From positions 1 to 46,119 of the forward strand of contig NZ_JAUSUP010000014.1 in assembly GCF_030814115.1 (NCBI RefSeq): a stretch of 46,119 nucleotides of DNA, given 5' to 3'. This document shows, piece by piece, positions 1,411 to 33,635 of this stretch. A model generated the notes under the pieces. It was given only the letters and a program-made list of their open reading frames with translations. It was not told the DNA's origin and made no database searches. The translations under genes were made by a program, and so were the position numbers. Source of the stretch: Alkalibacillus filiformis. GTDB lineage: Bacteria; Bacillota; Bacilli; Bacillales; Alkalibacillaceae. Each line of letters starts with the position of its first letter. Within the stretch, counting starts at the first letter, position 1.

Positions 1411-1821
1411 TTATTGACAACTTGGGCAGCGTCCGTAAATTTCGAATTTATGATTTTCAATCGTATAACCAGGAAAGTCTTGTTGAATAAAATTCATAGG
1501 GCAAGCATCAATTGTTTTCGTTTTACCACAAGATTGGCATATAAAATGATGGTGGTGCTCATGATGATCACAAGCTAAACGGAAATGTTTCTCACCATTT
1601 AAATCCGTCGATTCTAAAATGTTAAGCTCACGAAATAGATGTAAGTTACGATAAATCGTGTCATAACTTAACCCACCATATCTTTCACCCATGAAGTTAA
1701 GGAGGTCACTTGCTGTACGGTAACCATCTTCTTCAGTGAAATATTCTAATATATCTTCTCTTTTCTTCGTATATTTATAGCCCTCTTGCTTCAAAAGACC
1801 TAAAGCTTTCTCAAGATTCAT
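1411..1821 (-). CDS. zur: Zur, zinc-responsive Fur-family repressor
   Basis: Fur-family DNA-binding repressor of zinc uptake. The N-terminal winged helix carries YKYTKKREDIL and the recognition segment LSYDTIYRNL. The C-terminal half has the metal-binding HHEHHHH run and two structural Cys pairs, CQSC and CPSC at the very C-terminus. The pattern is closer to Bacillus Zur than to Fur or PerR. It is the last gene of the zinc operon. GTG at 1830 overlaps the znuB stop, but ATG at 1821 is better placed (AAAGGG 8 nt upstream) and gives 136 residues, so translational coupling with znuB is likely. Two Zur boxes upstream of znuA imply that it represses its own operon. Confidence 0.92.
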   Translation of the reverse strand: MNLEKALGLLKQEGYKYTKKREDILEYFTEEDGYRTASDLLNFMGERYGGLSYDTIYRNLHLFRELNILESTDLNGEKHFRLACDHHEHHHHFICQSCGKTKTIDACPMNFIQQDFPGYTIENHKFEIYGRCPSCQ

Positions 1822-1826
1822 AACGC

Positions 1827-2672
1827 TCACCCTTTATAAATATAAGCCAAATACCATTTCTTAATTAATAATGTTAAGCCTAGTAATATAGCAGATGTAA
1901 TAACAATCGTCCCACCTGGTGGGATCTCTAAATAATAACCTGCAATTAAACCTATTATAACAGCAAATTCACCAAAAATGATACTATAGACAATCGTTTG
2001 TTTAAAGCTTTTTGCTATACGCATTGCTGTAGCAACAGGTAAAGTCATTAAGGCAGAAACTAGTAAAACACCAACAATTCGAATTGATGCAGCAATGACT
2101 AAAGCTGTCATAATGATAAATAAATAATGAATGATTTTAGCACGTATACCTGATACTGTAGCGAATTCTTCATCAAATGATAAAGCAAATAGTTCTTTAT
2201 ATAAAAAAATGATAACAACGATGACGAAAACAGCAGTAAATAAAACTAAATATAAATCAGAACGGCTAACAGCAGCTACTGAGCCGAATAAATACGCATA
2301 TATATCCGTATTGATTCCATCAGCCATCGCAATAAATACGACACTTAAGCCAACACCAATAGACAACGTGATTGGAATGGCAATCTCTTGGAAAGCTTTA
2401 TATACGCCTCGTAAATTTTCAATGACAATCGCACCGATAATCGAAAATATAATCCCTGTGTGAAACGGTGTCAGCGCGAGTAGTGTATATTTCTTTTGCA
2501 TAAATAAACCAAAAGAAATTCCTGCTAACGTCACGTGAGACAGTCCATCTGCAATGAGTGACAAGCGACGTACAACAATAAATGTCCCTAATAAAGGGGC
2601 AAGTAAACCAACAATTAATCCGGTGTAAAACGTATTTCGTAAAATTTCAAAGTTTAATATAGCATCTAACAC
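1827..2672 (-). CDS. znuB: Zinc ABC transporter permease ZnuB
   Basis: Membrane permease of the manganese/zinc/iron ABC-3 family, 281 residues with about eight hydrophobic helices. Family segments include VRRLSLIADGLSHVTLAGI near residues 34-52 and the SALMTLPVATAMRIAKSF stretch that contacts the ATPase. It starts at GTG 2672 behind a GGAGGGG site. Neighbours are znuC upstream (20-bp gap) and zur downstream (stop next to the zur start), so the three are probably co-transcribed. Zinc rather than manganese is inferred from the Zur boxes and the His-rich ZnuA. Confidence 0.92.
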   Translation of the reverse strand: MLDAILNFEILRNTFYTGLIVGLLAPLLGTFIVVRRLSLIADGLSHVTLAGISFGLFMQKKYTLLALTPFHTGIIFSIIGAIVIENLRGVYKAFQEIAIPITLSIGVGLSVVFIAMADGINTDIYAYLFGSVAAVSRSDLYLVLFTAVFVIVVIIFLYKELFALSFDEEFATVSGIRAKIIHYLFIIMTALVIAASIRIVGVLLVSALMTLPVATAMRIAKSFKQTIVYSIIFGEFAVIIGLIAGYYLEIPPGGTIVITSAILLGLTLLIKKWYLAYIYKG

Positions 2673-2692
2673 AATTGCCCCTCCAATCGACG

Positions 2693-3445
2693 TTAATGAT
2701 CATGCGTAATTGTGTGCATGTCGTGTCCGTAAATTTTTGACCTTTGTTCATCTGTCATATGTTCAAAGTCGCCCGGATTACCGTGATAATGAACAGATTT
2801 GTTTAAACATAATAAGTCAGTAACATGTGTCGTAATTGTTCCAATATCGTGTGAAACGAGAATTAGCGTAATCCCTAATTCTTCATTTAATTGAGATAAT
2901 AGTTGGTAGAATTGCTGGACGTTTTCTGTATCAACGCCAACTGTCGGTTCATCTAAGATTAATAGACTTGGGTTGTTAACGATCGCGCGTGCGATGAAAA
3001 TTCGTTGTTGTTGTCCGCCTGATAAGTCACCGATATTATGGTTAGCATACTCCATCATATTGACGCGATCTAATGCTTCAAAAATTAAATACTCATATTT
3101 TTTAGTAGTTGGACGAAGTAAGCTCACTTTAGACGTTAACCCCATACTAACGACCTCTTTAGCCGTTGCAGGAAACCCTCGACTGAACGAGTTGGCTTTT
3201 TGTGAGACGAAGCTAACATGTCCTTTATTGTGAAACTTTTCGATTGGCTTTCCAAATGCTTCAATCGAACCTTTCTGTAGCTTTTCAAGTCCAAGAATTA
3301 GTTTAATAATCGTCGTTTTACCAGAGCCGTTTGGGCCGACCAAACCGACGAATGAACCAGTTTCAATTGTAAAACTGACATCTTCAAGTACTTTGTGCTT
3401 ATCATATCGGTGCGTCACACCGTTAACAGTAATTAAATTCGTCAC
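2693..3445 (-). CDS. znuC: Zinc ABC transporter ATP-binding protein ZnuC
   Basis: Cytoplasmic ATPase of the ZnuABC importer, 250 residues. Walker A GPNGSGKTT, Q-loop FVSQKA, signature LSGGQQQR, Walker B LLILDEP and switch histidine LVSHD are all intact. The C-terminus is His-rich (YGHDMHTITHDH), common in ZnuC proteins. The start is GTG 3445, with GGAGGAG 5 nt upstream; the frame is open further upstream but runs through the hairpin between znuA and znuC and has no ribosome site. The gene follows znuA after an intervening terminator-like hairpin, so its expression may be lower than znuA. Confidence 0.93.
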   Translation of the reverse strand: MTNLITVNGVTHRYDKHKVLEDVSFTIETGSFVGLVGPNGSGKTTIIKLILGLEKLQKGSIEAFGKPIEKFHNKGHVSFVSQKANSFSRGFPATAKEVVSMGLTSKVSLLRPTTKKYEYLIFEALDRVNMMEYANHNIGDLSGGQQQRIFIARAIVNNPSLLILDEPTVGVDTENVQQFYQLLSQLNEELGITLILVSHDIGTITTHVTDLLCLNKSVHYHGNPGDFEHMTDEQRSKIYGHDMHTITHDH

Positions 3446-3497
3446 GGTAACTCCTCCTTCCAAAGAGGTAATTAAAATTAACAATAAACAAGAAAAG

Positions 3498-3539
3498 AAA
3501 GGCGATGGGCGAACTATAATTAGTCCGCTTTTCGCCTTT
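3498..3539 (-). terminator. Terminator-like hairpin between znuA and znuC
   Basis: On the minus strand AAAGGCGA and TCGCCTTT enclose an inner GCGGACTA/TAGTTCGC stem, followed by CTTTTCTTG. It would end or attenuate znuA transcripts before znuCB-zur, a common way to make more binding protein than permease. Confidence 0.65.
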
Positions 3540-3553
3540 ATTATCATAACATA

Positions 3554-4702
3554 TTATTCTTCGATTGTTTCTAGTAAAACGTCTAGGTTTTCTAGCATAA
3601 TATCAATATAGTCATTGCCATTTTCAATATCTTCTTCTGTTAATGTTTCTAAGTTGTGTAATTCATATACTGCTAGATCAAATTCATCCGCAATAGTTTG
3701 CGCTAAACGGTCTTCACGATTTTTTTCCAAGATGACATGATGGATATTTAAGTCGTCTAATGACTCAAATAGCTCTTGAAGCTCTCGCTGTGATGGCTCT
3801 TGAGACGATGATAAGCCGCGGATGCCATATTGGTTAATACCGTAAGCTTGTTCCCAATAACCGAAAGCCTCGTGAGCAACTAAAATATTAACATCTTCAT
3901 CAACTGTTAAAGCTTCTTGGAAAGTTGTGTCTAACTCTAGCATGTTGTTAGCAAATTGTTCATAGTTTTCTTCTAGTAAATCAGCGTGGTCTGGATAAAT
4001 GTCCTTTAGTTCATCTAAAATCACTTGACCAACCGCAATCATACGAGATGGATCTAACCAAAAGTGTGGATCAAAGTCACCATGGTCATGATCATGATCG
4101 TGTCCGTGGTCATGGTCGTGATCTTCATCTTCATGGTTGTGATCATCCTCATGGTTGTGATCATCCTCATGGTTGTGATCATCTTCATGGTTGTGATCGT
4201 CTTCATGATTGTGATCATCTTCATGGTTGTGCTCATCTTCATGACCGTGGTCGTGATCATCGCTGTGCTCATCATCATATTCCATAAATAATTCCTCTTC
4301 ATACTTTGAAAGGGCAAATGTATAAACACCTTCATCTTCAATAGTGTTTGCCATCGTCTCAGCGAATACTTCCATACCTTCACCGATATAGAAGAAAGCA
4401 TCGCTATCTGCTAATTCGATCATTTCTCTAGTAGATGGCTCATATACGTGAGCATCTGCGCCTGGAGGAATTACTGTTTCTACACCAACTAGGTCTCCAG
4501 CAATTTCAGATATGATATATTCAATCGGGTAAATTGAAGTGACAATCGTTCCAAGTTCTTCTTCAATTATTTCTTCATCTACAGTTTCTTCTGATGGAGT
4601 GTCCCCATTGTCATCAGCTTTAGTTTCTTCTTCAGATTCTCCACCGCAAGCGGCTAAAATAAATAAAAGAGTAATAAAAATAAAACCTTTAAATAATTTC
4701 AA
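3554..4702 (-). CDS. znuA: Zinc-binding lipoprotein ZnuA with long His/Asp-rich loop
   Basis: Cluster A-I solute-binding lipoprotein of the ZnuABC zinc importer, tethered outside the membrane through Cys19 (lipobox LAAC). Fold markers include VTSIYPI (54-60), the metal-ligand region GADAHVYEPS (81-90), DPHFWLDP (217-224) and AHEAFGYW. Residues about 146-214 form a His/Asp/Glu loop containing six-residue HNHEDD repeats; such loops are typical of zinc-specific members. The 382-residue length exceeds the usual 300-320 because of this loop and an acidic N-terminal linker. The start is TTG 4702 with an AAGGGAGAG site. The promoter carries two Zur boxes. Confidence 0.93.
   Translation of the reverse strand: MKLFKGFIFITLLFILAACGGESEEETKADDNGDTPSEETVDEEIIEEELGTIVTSIYPIEYIISEIAGDLVGVETVIPPGADAHVYEPSTREMIELADSDAFFYIGEGMEVFAETMANTIEDEGVYTFALSKYEEELFMEYDDEHSDDHDHGHEDEHNHEDDHNHEDDHNHEDDHNHEDDHNHEDDHNHEDEDHDHDHGHDHDHDHGDFDPHFWLDPSRMIAVGQVILDELKDIYPDHADLLEENYEQFANNMLELDTTFQEALTVDEDVNILVAHEAFGYWEQAYGINQYGIRGLSSSQEPSQRELQELFESLDDLNIHHVILEKNREDRLAQTIADEFDLAVYELHNLETLTEEDIENGNDYIDIMLENLDVLLETIEE
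4106..4231. repeat. 18-bp tandem repeat inside znuA (HNHEDD units)
   Basis: Near-identical 18-bp units (TCATGGTTGTGATCATCC on the plus strand, with a few base changes) repeat about six to seven times in frame within znuA. Each encodes one His-Asn-His-Glu-Asp-Asp unit. Low divergence between units suggests recent slippage expansion and likely copy-number variation. Confidence 0.85.
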
Positions 4703-4869: not shown

Positions 4870-5259
4870 ATGTTTGATTATACGGTAACGACGAGTAAGT
4901 CAGTTGATGAAGCAGTTGAAGCGTTAACTAAGTCACTGCAAGAGGTGAAGTTCGGTGTGTTGTGGGATTTTGATGTGAAAGAGACATTACACCAAAAAGG
5001 GTTTGACGATTTTGATCAAACCTATCGCATTTTAGAAGTTTGTAATCCGAAAGCAGCAAAGGAAGTATTAGGGATGGAGGAAAAAGTAAGTTACTTCTTA
5101 CCATGTAAAGTCGTTGTTTATGAAAGTGAAGGAACGACGAAAATTGGTATGCCGAAACCAACTGTATTATTGAGTTACATTGAGAAGGAAGAGGTAACAC
5201 AATTTGCACAAGATATAGAAGAAACAATGGTTAAAGCAATTGATCAAGCTAAATCGTAA
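4870..5259 (+). CDS. DUF302 domain protein
   Basis: Cytosolic protein of 129 residues composed of a single DUF302 domain: MFDYTVTTSKSVDEAV at the start, the GFGVLWDFDVK-like block (here KFGVLWDFDVKETL), ILEVCNPKAAKEVL and a C-terminal PTVLLSYI. DUF302 has no firmly established biochemical role; such genes often sit beside CsoR-family regulators, copper genes or sulfur-transfer genes. The start at ATG 4870 is set by GGAGGG 7 nt upstream; an upstream in-frame codon at 4846 lacks a site. It is divergent from znuA and followed by a lipoprotein gene and copZ, suggesting a small metal or thiol stress cluster. Confidence 0.8.
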   Translation: MFDYTVTTSKSVDEAVEALTKSLQEVKFGVLWDFDVKETLHQKGFDDFDQTYRILEVCNPKAAKEVLGMEEKVSYFLPCKVVVYESEGTTKIGMPKPTVLLSYIEKEEVTQFAQDIEETMVKAIDQAKS

Positions 5260-5333: not shown

Positions 5334-5819
5334 ATGAAGAAATACTTCCTAGTAATAGTGCTTCTACTTACGATCTTGGCTGCATGTTCGGATCCTATTA
5401 GCGAAAATGAGGCGGGAATTAAGTATGATTCCTCATTAGAAGGGTTAACTTATAATGTAGAAGAACAAGCTTGGTCACCGCAACTAGCTGATGTTTTTAA
5501 AGACGAAGCATTGGAGCCAATGAAAGAAGCTTATGAAATTGCGATCCATCACGGCGATTTATTGTCGTACATGCCTTGTTATTGCGGTTGTTATGAAATG
5601 GGGCATGAAAGCAATCGTGATTGTTTTGTAGAAGGTGTTAATGATGGTATAGCTGAAATTGATCAAATGGGCTTTGGTTGAACGATCTGTGTTGATATAG
5701 CCCGTGAGGCTAAACAAATGCATGATGAAGGCTATGATATAGTTGAGATTCGCGAAGCAATTGACGCTCAGTATGAAGACACAGACTTAGAACCTACACC
5801 AACTCCAATGCCTGAATAG
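5334..5819 (+). CDS. PCYCGC-motif lipoprotein with in-frame TGA (candidate selenoprotein)
   Basis: Exported lipoprotein: signal peptide with lipobox LAAC (Cys18), then PCYCGC at residues 81-86, GHESNRDCF, and a second thiol site. The function of the PCYCGC family is not established; the many cysteines suggest metal or redox work outside the cell. The frame meets TGA at 5679-5681 (residue 116), right where homologues as I recall them have the first Cys of a C-x-x-C before (V/L)DIA. It then continues TICVDIAREAKQMHDEGYD and ends in PTPTPMPE at TAG 5817. The 45 post-TGA codons have no further stop and normal codon use. Read through, it is 161 residues; stopped, 115. The start at ATG 5334 has AAGGAATAGGG upstream. 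Selenocysteine, a nonsense mutation or a sequencing error remain possible. Confidence 0.75.
5690..5716 (+). promoter_or_regulatory. Candidate bacterial SECIS hairpin after the in-frame TGA
   Basis: TAGCC (5698-5702) pairs with GGCTA (5708-5712) around loop CGTGA. A lower stem TGTT/AACA (5690-5693, 5713-5716) is joined through a one-sided GATA bulge. The loop begins 21 nt after the TGA and carries G at its second position followed by T, within the published geometry for bacterial SECIS elements. A short hairpin can arise by chance. Confidence 0.45.
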
Positions 5820-5889: not shown

Positions 5890-6096
5890 ATGGAATTAAC
5901 GTTAAATGTACAAGGTATGTCTTGTGGTAATTGTAAACAAGCTGTTCAAAATGCATTGAAAAACTTAGATGGCATTGCCTCAGTAGAGGTTCATTTAGAC
6001 AGTGGCAAAGTTGATGTTAGCTTTGATGAAGATACGGTTAGCACTGAAGAAGTTAAAGAAGCAATTGAAGAACAAGGTTATGATGTAACAAATTAA
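5890..6096 (+). CDS. copZ: CopZ-like copper chaperone (HMA domain)
   Basis: A 68-residue heavy-metal-associated domain with the metal site GMSCGNC (residues 9-15) and the usual beta-alpha-beta-beta-alpha-beta pattern ending in EEQGYDVTN. CopZ proteins carry Cu(I) in the cytosol to CopA ATPase or the CsoR repressor. No copA or csoR lies in this window, so the partner must be elsewhere or the protein handles another soft metal. The ribosome site AGGTAGGGG precedes ATG 5890. It follows the PCYCGC lipoprotein by 70 bp without an obvious terminator, so co-transcription is possible. Confidence 0.85.
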   Translation: MELTLNVQGMSCGNCKQAVQNALKNLDGIASVEVHLDSGKVDVSFDEDTVSTEEVKEAIEEQGYDVTN

Positions 6097-6445: not shown

Positions 6446-6490
6446 AAACCCGAATGAAATCTATTTCTGATTTCGTTCGGGTTTTGTGTA
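6446..6490. terminator. Hairpin AAACCCGAA...TTCGGGTTT (terminator-like)
   Basis: AAACCCGAATGAAATC pairs with GATTTCGTTCGGGTTT (one or two mismatches) and is followed by TTGTG. It can act as a bidirectional terminator after copZ. The same hairpin recurs at 43028-43068 as part of the dispersed element. Confidence 0.65.
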
Positions 6491-13164: not shown

Positions 13165-13304
13165 ATATCAGCGATTTTGAAGATATATCGGCGAAAAAGC
13201 CTATAATTCGGCGATAATTATAATATTCCGGCGAAAAACTAATTATATCGGCGAAAAAATAAATATATCAGCGAACGCTGATTTATATCGGCGTTCGCTG
13301 ATTT
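13165..13304. repeat. Seven-unit array of exact 20-bp period (ATATCGGCG units)
   Basis: The core (T/C)C(G/A)GCG recurs with GCG at 13171, 13191, 13211, 13231, 13251, 13271 and 13291, a strict 20-bp spacing. Typical unit: ATATCGGCGAAAAANNNAAT. The last two units form a perfect inverted repeat AGCGAACGC / GCGTTCGCT. No gene lies within. A related three-unit array is at 45970-46030. Confidence 0.85.
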
Positions 13305-13381
13305 ATGGATATTACGACCTATGCTTTTCAAGTGAGCGATTCGATTCTTTATGGTAAACTCACATTAAGGAGGTGTCATAT

Positions 13382-15581: not shown

Positions 15582-15611
15582 ACAATTTATCGAAAGTTGA
15601 ATAATTAAATT

Positions 15612-15760
15612 CTTATCAAGAGTGGTGGAGGGAAAAGGCCCTACGAAACCCGGCAACCGTTATGTTCTGCATAATAGGTGCTAATTCCTACAATGTTTAC
15701 ACATTGTAAGATAAGATTGAGATCCGTACTCTTTCTTGTTCTTACAAGGGAGTTTTTTTA
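15612..15760 (+). promoter_or_regulatory. SAM-I (S-box) riboswitch 1
   Basis: Classic S-box order: CTTATCAAGAG, GGTGGAGGGA, GGCCCT, GAAACCCGGCAACC, GGTGCTAATTCCT, and closing GATAAG (aptamer 15612-15715). A terminator hairpin follows (15728-15750, ACTCTTTCTTGT with ACAAGGGAGT) and a seven-T run. SAM binding should cause termination. It is the upstream member of a tandem pair. Confidence 0.95.
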
Positions 15761-15816: not shown

Positions 15817-15988
15817 CTCTTATCAAGAGTGGTGGAGGGACTGGCCCGATGAAGCCCGGCAACCGTTATGCTTTGCATAATAGGTGCTAATTCCTTCAAA
15901 GCAATGCTTTGAAAGATAAGAGAACAAAAAGGTTAGCCATTTCTTAACCTCTCTGTTCTCTTATCGAGCAGAGGGGTTTTCTTATTTT
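15817..15988 (+). promoter_or_regulatory. SAM-I (S-box) riboswitch 2
   Basis: Second full S-box (CTCTTATC 15817 to GATAAGAG 15922) with GGTGGAGGGA, GATGAAGCCCGGCAACC and GGTGCTAATTCCT. The terminator is AACCTCTCTG (15946-15955) with CAGAGGGGTT (15969-15978), then a T-rich tract. GATAAGAGAAC can instead pair with GTTCTCTTATC in the terminator loop, giving a strong antiterminator. It directly precedes metN. Confidence 0.96.
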
Positions 15989-28313: not shown

Positions 28314-28540
28314 CGATCGATGAGGTAGAGGTGCGCTTATCATGACTAACATATGTGAGGATGACAACGAAGATCATATGTGAAAGGGGTAAGTGCCGAA
28401 GTACTCAATTAGTCAATATTTGAGTATTGGTGTATTTCTGAACAAGGGGTACACTCTCGCGTGAGAAGCGGGGAGCTACTGATCGAGAAATAACCGACTT
28501 TCAAAAGTAATGGTAGATTTCTCTATCATTACTTTTTTTA
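28314..28540 (+). promoter_or_regulatory. Lysine riboswitch (L-box) with terminator
   Basis: Core L-box elements appear in order: GAGGTAGAGGTGCGC, TCATGACTAA, GATGACAACGAAGATC, GAAAGGGGTAAGTGCCGAAGT, ACAAGGGGTACACTCTCGCG and GGGGAGCTACTGATCGAG. P1 pairs TCGATC (28314-28319) with GATCGA (28482-28487). The terminator is AAAGTAATGGTAGA (28505-28518) with TCTATCATTACTTT (28522-28535) and a T-run. Lysine should shut off the downstream transporter. Confidence 0.95.
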
Positions 28541-33047: not shown

Positions 33048-33320
33048 ATGGAATTACAAGGACAAACTTATGAATTAATATATAATTACCGTGATGGCTT
33101 TCAACAAGAAGTGTTAGAGGAGCGATTCACAGATATTTTAACGAAATATGATTATATTGTTGGTGATTGGGGATTCGGACAACTTAGGCTAAAAGGATTT
33201 TATGATGATCATAATCAGAAAGCTACATATGATACAAAAATCTCGACATTAGAGGATTACTTATATGAGTACTGTAATTTTGGCTGTGCTTATTTCGTCT
33301 TAAAGAGAATCGAACAATAA
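33048..33320 (+). CDS. yutD: YutD-family protein (DUF1027)
   Basis: Cytosolic protein of 90 residues with the YutD signature YELIYNYRDGFQ, FTDILTKYDYIVGDWGFGQLRLKGF and the Cys-containing end YLYEYCNFGCAYFVLKR. Role unknown; the family is conserved in Firmicutes. ATG 33048 is set by AGAGGTG 6 nt away; GTG 33039 lies within that site. It is divergent from lytH and has its own terminator. Confidence 0.88.
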   Translation: MELQGQTYELIYNYRDGFQQEVLEERFTDILTKYDYIVGDWGFGQLRLKGFYDDHNQKATYDTKISTLEDYLYEYCNFGCAYFVLKRIEQ

Positions 33321-33357
33321 ATGACCGGAAAACTCATAACGAGTTCCGGTCATTTTT
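33321..33357. terminator. Bidirectional terminator after yutD
   Basis: ATGACCGGAAAACTC / GAGTTCCGGTCAT (bulged A), followed by TTTTTT. It serves yutD and the convergent hypothetical gene, whose stop lies in its right flank. Confidence 0.9.
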
Positions 33358-33619
33358 TACGTTCGTCATCTAAACCTTCATCGTGCGGGAAATTTTCTGG
33401 TTTATGAGCAAAAGGATATTTTCTTGGTAAATCTTCGTGTAATTGTTTATTTTCGTAGTTAAAGGCTGAAAAATGTCTTCGCTTTGGATCGTGCTCTCTT
33501 TCTTGTAAAGGTTGATCATCAGGTTGCCCATAGTTACCATCGGGAAACTCTTCAGGTACTTGATAATTTTGTTGTACTTCGACTGTTGCGAAGTCATCAT
33601 GTTTTTTTCGTTTTCCCAC
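33350..33619 (-). CDS. Conserved hypothetical cytosolic protein
   Basis: An 89-residue highly charged protein without membrane segments or signal. VPEEFPDGNYG and the block FNYENKQLHEDLPRKYPFAH resemble a short Bacillaceae family of unknown function. GTG 33619 follows AAGGAGG at 7 nt. The gene lies 16 bp after the DUF3055 gene on the same strand, so the two are probably one transcript. Another frame open over the same DNA (33370-33600) is lower quality. Confidence 0.72.
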   Translation of the reverse strand: MGKRKKHDDFATVEVQQNYQVPEEFPDGNYGQPDDQPLQEREHDPKRRHFSAFNYENKQLHEDLPRKYPFAHKPENFPHDEGLDDERKK

Positions 33620-33635
33620 TGTATAACCTCCTTAT

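What the first reader, a model, noticed from the sequence alone, without database searches (positions are those of the whole stretch)
5334..5819. Candidate selenoprotein: PCYCGC lipoprotein with in-frame TGA at a C-x-x-C position and a SECIS-like hairpin
Seen: one TGA (5679-5681) interrupts an otherwise continuous frame. The downstream 45 codons keep family-like sequence (ICVDIA, then PTPTPMP at the end). The TGA is exactly where a Cys-x-x-C would begin (TGA-T-I-C). A hairpin (TAGCC / GGCTA, loop CGTGA, loop 21 nt after TGA, G at loop position 2) follows. Known: selenocysteine usually replaces Cys of homologues, and bacterial SECIS hairpins lie just after UGA with a G in the apical loop. Inference: a U-x-x-C redox or metal site in an extracytoplasmic lipoprotein of unknown function. 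Alternative: TGT/TGC to TGA nonsense mutation.
Basis: partly seen in the sequence, partly recalled or inferred. Interest (0 to 1): 0.9.

Follow-up and report, generated by a model that had tools for sequence, protein, structure and literature searches.

The report
Selenocysteine lipoprotein near copper genes
An Alkalibacillus gene that looks broken by a stop codon is very probably read through to make a selenium-containing surface lipoprotein, a new member of an already listed selenoprotein family whose likely job is handling copper or other metals outside the cell.

Summary
Window 5334-5819 encodes a 161-aa PCYCGC (PF13798) lipoprotein whose in-frame TGA (5679-5681) replaces the first Cys of a conserved C-x-x-C. 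The host genome has tRNA-Sec, selA, selB and a Sec-type selD. Of 80 homologues kept, 32 have TGA and 48 TGT/TGC at this codon. selA is over cut-off in 31 of 32 TGA genomes and 1 of 47 searched Cys genomes. A Thermomicrobium relative, annotated only up to its TGA, adds a covarying pair.

It is not a new selenoprotein family: reviews list "CYCXC/OS_HP4", PF13798, UxxC, credited to a 2007 study of a worm symbiont. What appears new is a lipoprotein branch in Bacillaceae and relatives that scores below NCBI's cut-off (all five members tested) and often lies beside copper or heavy-metal efflux genes (21 of 32 TGA loci; here next to copZ). The likely role, extracytoplasmic metal handling through a selenol-thiol site, is inferred. 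Selenium incorporation is untested.

The parts
5334..5819 (+). PCYCGC-family selenolipoprotein gene, 161 aa when TGA is read as Sec
   Evidence: PF13798 E 5.9e-31 over residues 8-160, profile 2-153 of 153; translation
5334..5387 (+). signal peptide and lipobox (LAAC, Cys18 the predicted lipidated residue)
   Evidence: Sequence; C18 invariant in 42 of 42 aligned homologues; LPAM_1 only 16.1 bits against cut-off 20
5574..5591 (+). PCYCGC motif (residues 81-86)
   Evidence: Invariant in A5, 42 sequences; the search that fetched the homologues used this motif as one of two patterns, so part of this is by selection
5679..5681 (+). in-frame TGA, proposed selenocysteine codon (Sec116)
   Evidence: TGA in 32, TGT in 24, TGC in 24 of 80 homologues
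5679..5690 (+). U-x-x-C motif (Sec116, Cys119)
   Evidence: Both columns invariant (Cys or Sec) in 42 of 42
5698..5712 (+). bacterial SECIS hairpin: 5-bp stem, CGUGA loop
   Evidence: not conserved in 48 Cys homologues
4870..5259 (+). DUF302 gene upstream, same strand
   Evidence: PF03625 E 1.3e-21; near the gene in 4 of 32 TGA loci and 0 of 48 Cys loci
5890..6096 (+). copZ-like copper chaperone gene, starts 70 bp after the selenoprotein gene
   Evidence: NF033795 CopZ 106.4 bits, cut-off 91; PF00403 E 3.4e-18
6446..6484 (+). terminator-like hairpin downstream of copZ, possible end of the transcription unit
   Evidence: Pattern scan; 2 terminator-like sites found in the region against 1.3 expected, so weak
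1411..4702 (-). Fur-family regulator and zinc ABC transporter on the other strand (fur, znuB, znuC, znuA)
   Evidence: PF01475 for 1414-1830 and PF01297 for 3557-4702; ORFs; the znuB and znuC names are by eye from sequence and context

Best explanation
UGA at 5679-5681 is decoded as selenocysteine by the host's SelA/SelB/SelD/tRNA-Sec system, directed by the hairpin at 5698-5712. The product is exported, lipidated at Cys18 and held on the outer face of the membrane. There Sec116-x-x-Cys119, the PCYCGC cysteines (82, 84, 86), Cys97 and His91 form one soft-metal/redox site. Shown by comparison: the codon, the hairpin, the decoding genes, and interchange of Sec and Cys at this column. Inferred: export, lipidation, and that these residues come together. 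Inferred from neighbourhoods, about 50%: the site binds or hands over Cu(I) or a related soft metal, or keeps thiols that handle such a metal reduced, with the cytosolic chaperone CopZ and export ATPases as partners.
For: Decoding genes in the same genome: tRNA-Sec 62.3 bits against cut-off 47, also called by ARAGORN; selB 331.8 bits; selA 547.5 bits; selD 392.8 bits, itself with an in-frame TGA, reading KAGUGC. All lie within 7 kb on one contig. TGA recurs: 9 of 9 PF13798 genes found in 22 family genomes; 32 of 80 homologues. selA over cut-off in 31 of 32 TGA genomes and 1 of 47 Cys genomes searched. SECIS stem: 160 of 160 cells paired, 11 cells with both sides changed, 0 of 500 shuffles reach the covariation score; Cys genes 55.0% paired, shuffles 55.5%. 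Synonymous identity at codons +6 to +11: 0.834 observed, 0.437 expected in TGA genes (n=34); 0.365 and 0.332 in Cys genes (n=44 of 48). Loop and distance fit the published bSECIS model (passage). Metal links: copZ 70 bp downstream; metal-efflux clusters near 21 of 32 TGA loci (names); multicopper oxidase, copper-binding protein or heavy-metal ATPase beside Cys-type genes on 3 of 4 Bacillota plasmids inspected (Cys checked).
Against: No selenium was measured. One TGA genome (L048, Bacillus sp. B1-b2) has neither selA nor tRNA-Sec over cut-off, although its locus is 98% identical to that of a selA-bearing strain, L060. The sel genes do not exist for this gene alone: 20 of 22 family genomes have selA over cut-off but only 9 have PF13798. 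With 15 upstream bases the consensus fold is another pairing, though it lacks covariation. Metal role: 11 of 32 TGA loci show no metal-efflux cluster; the TGA loci share ancestry; Cys loci show it in only 5 of 48, and counting zinc-uptake genes as well gives 21 of 32 against 15 of 48; one of four Bacillota plasmids has no metal neighbour in the stretch seen. No solved structure is clearly related.
Confidence: 0.88

Rival explanations
1. Same selenoprotein, but its job is thiol-disulfide reduction outside the cell (a CcmH- or ResA-like partner), not metal binding.
For: U-x-x-C is a common redox motif (recalled); a resA-like gene is near 5 of 32 and a CcdA/DsbD-like gene near 3 of 32 TGA loci, each 0 of 48 Cys loci (names); the best Foldseek hit is CcmH, 2hl7.
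Against: The CcmH hit has E 1.9, probability 0.21; hhalign to E. coli CcmH gives 21.9% (pairwise E 0.00097, not a database E-value) and aligns only residues 120-159 with CcmH 60-100, so the C-x-x-C motifs are not in register. Metal-efflux neighbours are commoner than resA (21 against 5 of 32).
Confidence: 0.35
2. The TGA is an ordinary stop and a 115-residue protein is the product; the downstream frame is a relic.
For: Public annotation of a Thermomicrobium relative stops at its TGA.
Against: The downstream frame keeps family sequence in the TGA genes; the hairpin covaries; TGA presence tracks selA.
Confidence: 0.02
3. A nonsense mutation or sequencing error in this strain.
For: A single TGA in one gene, taken alone.
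Against: The same TGA occurs in 33 other genomes examined, at the same codon.
Confidence: 0.01
4. The UGA is read through with another amino acid (Trp or Cys by near-cognate decoding), not Sec.
For: No direct evidence found.
Against: tRNA-Sec and SelB are present, the hairpin fits the bSECIS model, and in all 80 loci the site reads TGA, TGT or TGC (the script looked for C/U-x-x-C, and found it in each).
Confidence: 0.02

Closest known systems
CYCXC family / hypothetical protein OS_HP4 selenoprotein (NF041379; PF13798; UxxC)
   Same: Same Pfam family and same U-x-x-C motif; the NCBIfam profile aligns over positions 13-89 of 90 with residues 62-147, which include the Sec column. Listed as a selenoprotein in PMC13188914 (with PF13798) and PMC9312934 (passages).
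   Different: This protein scores 66.4 bits against a cut-off of 90, carries an N-terminal segment of about 60 residues with a lipobox before that match, and is from Bacillota; the reviews credit OS_HP4 to a deltaproteobacterial worm symbiont (Zhang and Gladyshev 2007, not held).
PCYCGC lipoprotein of Parageobacillus thermoglucosidasius (AOT13_14730, PF13798)
   Same: Same Pfam family, lipoprotein, conserved cysteines; no function assigned in PMC13068155 (passage).
   Different: The passage seen does not call it a selenoprotein; its site codon was not examined here.
Cys orthologues in Oceanobacillus halotolerans (L038) and Lentibacillus populi (L039)
   Same: Nested in the Sec group and flanked by the same fur-znuBCA and fadB-like/thiolase gene clusters as the window.
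   Different: TGT at the site and no SECIS-like sequence by eye; only Lentibacillus has selA and tRNA-Sec over cut-off (tRNA-Sec was not sought in L038).
CcmH periplasmic domain (2hl7, 2kw0)
   Same: Extracytoplasmic protein with C-x-x-C and a helix-loop-helix that aligns weakly.
   Different: Not significant; motifs out of register.

Membership tests
Bacterial selenoprotein | In-frame UGA aligned with Cys of homologues | tested here: met
   48 of 80 homologues have TGT/TGC, 32 have TGA
Bacterial selenoprotein | Complete decoding machinery in the genome (selA, selB, selC, selD) | tested here: met
Bacterial selenoprotein | Conserved SECIS hairpin: small loop, G in its first two positions, often followed by G or U, loop 16-37 nt from UGA | tested here: met
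   Loop CGUGA 21 nt after UGA; model quoted from PMC13188914 (passage); conservation
Bacterial selenoprotein | UGA conserved at the site in other species | tested here: met
   9 of 9 found in its family, 32 of 80 more widely, plus Thermomicrobium
Bacterial selenoprotein | Selenium in the protein | not testable with these tools
   Needs 75Se labelling or mass spectrometry
PF13798 PCYCGC | Score above the Pfam gathering cut-off (25 bits) | tested here: met
   107.9 bits
NF041379 CYCXC (OS_HP4) equivalog | Score above the curated cut-off (90 bits) | tested here: not met
   66.4 bits; four further members 54.0-73.8 bits, one of them Cys-type
NF041379 CYCXC (OS_HP4) equivalog | U-x-x-C motif | tested here: met
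   Sec116-T-I-C119; motif as listed in PMC13188914
Lipoprotein | Signal peptide with lipobox Cys | tested here: inconclusive
   LAAC seen and Cys18 invariant in 42 of 42; LPAM_1 16.1 bits, below its cut-off of 20
CcmH thioreductase | C-x-x-C aligned with that of CcmH, significant profile match | tested here: not met
Copper-handling protein | Copper binding or a copper phenotype | not testable with these tools
   Only neighbourhood evidence

The most novel reading that the evidence does not exclude
This is a membrane-anchored selenoprotein devoted to soft metals outside the cell. The selenolate of Sec116, with up to five thiolates and one histidine, binds Cu(I) or a similar metal and passes it on, acting as the extracytoplasmic counterpart of CopZ/CopA in Bacillaceae. 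Lineages gain or lose it, or swap Sec for Cys, depending on metal exposure and selenium supply.
Probability: 0.33. Interest if true: 0.68.

Novelty: new member of a known kind. Interest (0 to 1): 0.47.

Why it matters
Genes of this branch look like stop-truncated fragments and can be annotated that way, as shown for Thermomicrobium roseum. At least 34 Bacillota genomes (the window, 32 loci, and G020) and one other carry them. They offer a natural set in which Sec and Cys forms of one lipoprotein sit in related genomes, at one syntenic position in the case of Oceanobacillus and Lentibacillus. That makes it possible to test what Sec adds to an extracytoplasmic metal or thiol site. They also show a selenoprotein family that reviews credit to a deltaproteobacterial symbiont in Bacillaceae such as Bacillus methanolicus, Cytobacillus and Neobacillus.

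Tried and rejected
Nonsense mutation or sequencing error: rejected by recurrence of the TGA in 33 other genomes. Other recoded genes in the window: a scan for frames with exactly one TGA, at least 40 codons before and 15 after it, listed 14; by eye none of the other 13 looks recoded, and one (33290-33631, minus) covers a plausible gene that simply ends at TGA with 19 open codons after it; no homology test was made on these. Fold of the hairpin alone: not significant, so not used as evidence. A second pairing, AUGGGC upstream of the UGA with GCCCGU, is the consensus RNAalifold structure, in place of the SECIS hairpin, when 15 upstream bases are given. Counted over 35 sequences it is complete in 28, pairs in 201 of 210 cells and shows no compensatory change, against 35 of 35 and 175 of 175 for the SECIS stem; I treat it as a by-product of coding, but it is not excluded as a competing structure. 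CcmH homology: tested and not supported. Sequence search of the PDB: only insignificant hits, best E 0.22 and 0.17. Phages: no DNA match. Class-wide search: 162 of 398 genomes match PF13798, but the match list was cut off, so Sec and Cys were not tallied there. The pdb_via library was unavailable. Thermomicrobium: selA was sought only on its plasmid record and not found; the chromosome was not searched.

Full report
WHAT IS THERE. The window very probably lies in an Alkalibacillus genome: the nearest named homologues are Alkalibacillus haloalkaliphilus, 95% and 93% identical, and the genome is held as G000, 2.7 Mb, 97.89% complete. The frame 5334-5819 has one TGA at 5679-5681, then 45 codons and a TAG. 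Read through, it is a 161-residue protein that matches PF13798 (PCYCGC) over its length, 107.9 bits; the part before the TGA alone scores 55.5 bits. Its N-terminus looks like a lipoprotein signal (LAAC, Cys18), though the lipobox profile stays below its cut-off.

THE CODON. A search with the nine family sequences found 314 confirmed homologues in GTDB contigs and kept the best 80. At the aligned codon, 32 have TGA, 24 TGT and 24 TGC; the script sought C/U-x-x-C downstream of PCYCGC and found it in all 80. In the window's own family, 9 of 22 genomes have a PF13798 gene and all 9 have exactly one TGA, at the same column. The comparative set of TGA genes is therefore 34: the window, 32 loci and L015. 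In an alignment of 42 of these 82 sequences, Cys18, Cys82, Cys84, Cys86, Cys97, residue 116 (Cys or Sec), Cys119, His91 and Asn94 are invariant; PCYCGC was one of the two search patterns, so its invariance is partly by selection.

THE MACHINERY. The genome has tRNA-Sec (62.3 bits, cut-off 47; also called by ARAGORN with anticodon tca), selB, selA and selD, all above their cut-offs and within 7 kb of one contig. SelD itself contains an in-frame TGA in KAGUGC. selA is over cut-off in 31 of 32 TGA genomes and in 1 of 47 Cys genomes searched; one Cys genome (L078) was not held. These counts are not corrected for shared ancestry. The exception among TGA genomes is Bacillus sp. B1-b2 (L048), with no selA and no tRNA-Sec over cut-off; its locus is 98.2% identical over 10.5 kb to that of Bacillus sp. 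V59.32b, so contamination, a recent transfer or recent loss of sel genes are all possible. The exception among Cys genomes, Lentibacillus populi, has selA and tRNA-Sec. Within the window's family, 20 of 22 genomes have selA over cut-off, so the Sec system is broader than this gene.

THE HAIRPIN. With Thermomicrobium added (35 sequences, 32 distinct), all 160 cells pair, three of five base pairs show changes on both sides (11 cells), and no shuffle of 500 reaches the covariation score; sliding the partner by 1-3 columns drops pairing to 19-50%. On the 34 without it: 155 of 155 cells (31 distinct), 8 cells with both sides changed. The same columns in 48 Cys genes pair in 55.0% of cells, equal to shuffles. 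Synonymous codon identity at codons +6 to +11 is 0.834 against 0.437 expected in TGA genes (n=34), but 0.365 against 0.332 in 44 Cys genes; L038, L039, L078 and L087 were left out of that Cys set. Upstream it is 0.539/0.447 and downstream 0.502/0.461 in TGA genes. The loop (CGUGA, G at position 2 followed by U, 21 nt from UGA) fits the bSECIS model described in PMC13188914 (passage). Against this: the window hairpin alone is not unusually stable; 27 of 34 single-sequence folds show it; and with 15 upstream bases the consensus fold becomes another pairing, AUGGGC with GCCCGU, which would exclude the SECIS stem. That pairing is complete in 28 of 35 sequences and has no compensatory change; the SECIS stem is complete in 35 of 35.

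HISTORY. A tree of 82 sequences, with the site masked, needs two changes between Sec and Cys (quick method, 123 columns, many weak forks, and the lone Sec row L099 sits on a very long branch). It shows a group of 33 Sec and 2 Cys rows, and a group of 46 Cys rows with L099. The two Cys rows in the Sec group (Oceanobacillus, Lentibacillus) have the same flanking fur-znu and fatty-acid gene clusters as the window and, by eye, no SECIS-like sequence, which suggests Sec-to-Cys reversion in place. A relative on the Thermomicrobium roseum megaplasmid has the TGA and a fully compensated stem; its public CDS ends exactly at the TGA. selA was not found on that plasmid record, and the chromosome was not searched.

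NEIGHBOURS AND LIKELY JOB. In the window the order is DUF302 (4870-5259), this gene, then copZ (5890-6096; CopZ 106.4 bits, cut-off 91), with a fur-znuBCA unit on the other strand. Clustering neighbours within about 5 kb (some flanks are shorter), a copper/heavy-metal ATPase or CopZ cluster is near 19 of 32 TGA loci, ArsR near 11, CopC near 7, CopD near 6, a RicR/CsoR-like repressor near 3; any of these near 21 of 32, against 5 of 48 Cys loci. Counting zinc-uptake genes too gives 21 of 32 against 15 of 48. A resA-like gene is near 5 and a CcdA/DsbD-like gene near 3 of 32 (names rest on representatives). Of four Bacillota plasmid copies whose surroundings were opened (of 17 plasmid records found), all Cys-type, three lie beside multicopper oxidase, copper-binding or heavy-metal ATPase/ArsR genes and one does not. 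These contexts differ from each other, which favours a shared function over mere inheritance, but lineage effects were not removed. No PDB fold matches significantly (14 hits at E up to 10, best CcmH at E 1.9). I therefore commit to a selenol/thiol soft-metal site outside the cell as most likely (about 50%), with thiol-disulfide reduction as the main rival (about 35%).

WHAT IS KNOWN. NCBIfam has NF041379, CYCXC family (seleno)protein, OS_HP4; this protein reaches 66.4 bits against a cut-off of 90, and four further members tested also fall below (54.0-73.8 bits). PMC13188914 lists it as PF13798, UxxC, one Sec, citing Zhang and Gladyshev 2007, and PMC9312934 lists OS_HP4 with UxxC (passages only). 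The 2007 paper is not held. A 2006 survey table gives three selenoprotein families in Bacillales (passage in PMC1794560). Searches for PCYCGC, PF13798, CYCXC and Alkalibacillus with selenoprotein listed no paper, in this open-licence library, that to my reading of titles, abstract starts and the passages opened describes the Bacillota lipoprotein branch as a selenoprotein; subscription papers are not covered.

VERDICT. A real selenoprotein gene by comparative evidence (about 0.95 for Sec decoding), a new branch of a known selenoprotein family, with a plausible but unproven role in copper or heavy-metal handling.

Noticed in passing
L116:3890-4207 (NC_011961.1 573004-573321): Thermomicrobium roseum PCYCGC gene TRD_RS14940 is annotated only up to its in-frame TGA; the frame continues with MTFGUGICIDI and a compensated SECIS stem.
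   Followed up: partly
window 5670-5678 and homologues: Codons -3 to -1 before the TGA (GGC TTT GGC) also show more synonymous conservation than expected in TGA genes; an alternative pairing AUGGGC/GCCCGU exists but shows no covariation.
   Followed up: partly
L048 (Bacillus sp. B1-b2): Carries the TGA gene and hairpin but no selA or tRNA-Sec over cut-off; its locus is 98% identical to L060.
   Followed up: partly
L039 (Lentibacillus populi): Has selA and tRNA-Sec yet TGT at the site and no SECIS-like sequence by eye, a possible Sec-to-Cys reversion in a Sec-using genome.
   Followed up: partly
G033 (genome of L044, Ammoniphilus sp. YIM 78166): Two full-length selA matches on different contigs.
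   Followed up: no
L098 (Arthrobacter beigongshangensis record): Its PCYCGC gene falls among Sporosarcina sequences, suggesting a mislabelled record or a transfer.
   Followed up: no
window 4125-4278: Tandem repeats of 18 bp inside znuA encoding a His/Asp/Glu-rich stretch.
   Followed up: no
window 15610-15717 and 15817-15922: Two SAM riboswitches in tandem ahead of an ABC transporter operon that looks like a methionine importer (operon reading by eye from ORFs).
   Followed up: no
window 28318-28486: Lysine riboswitch ahead of an antiporter-like gene (gene naming by eye).
   Followed up: no
window 13183-13306: Degenerate 20-bp repeats with CGGCGAAAAA-like units between genes.
   Followed up: no
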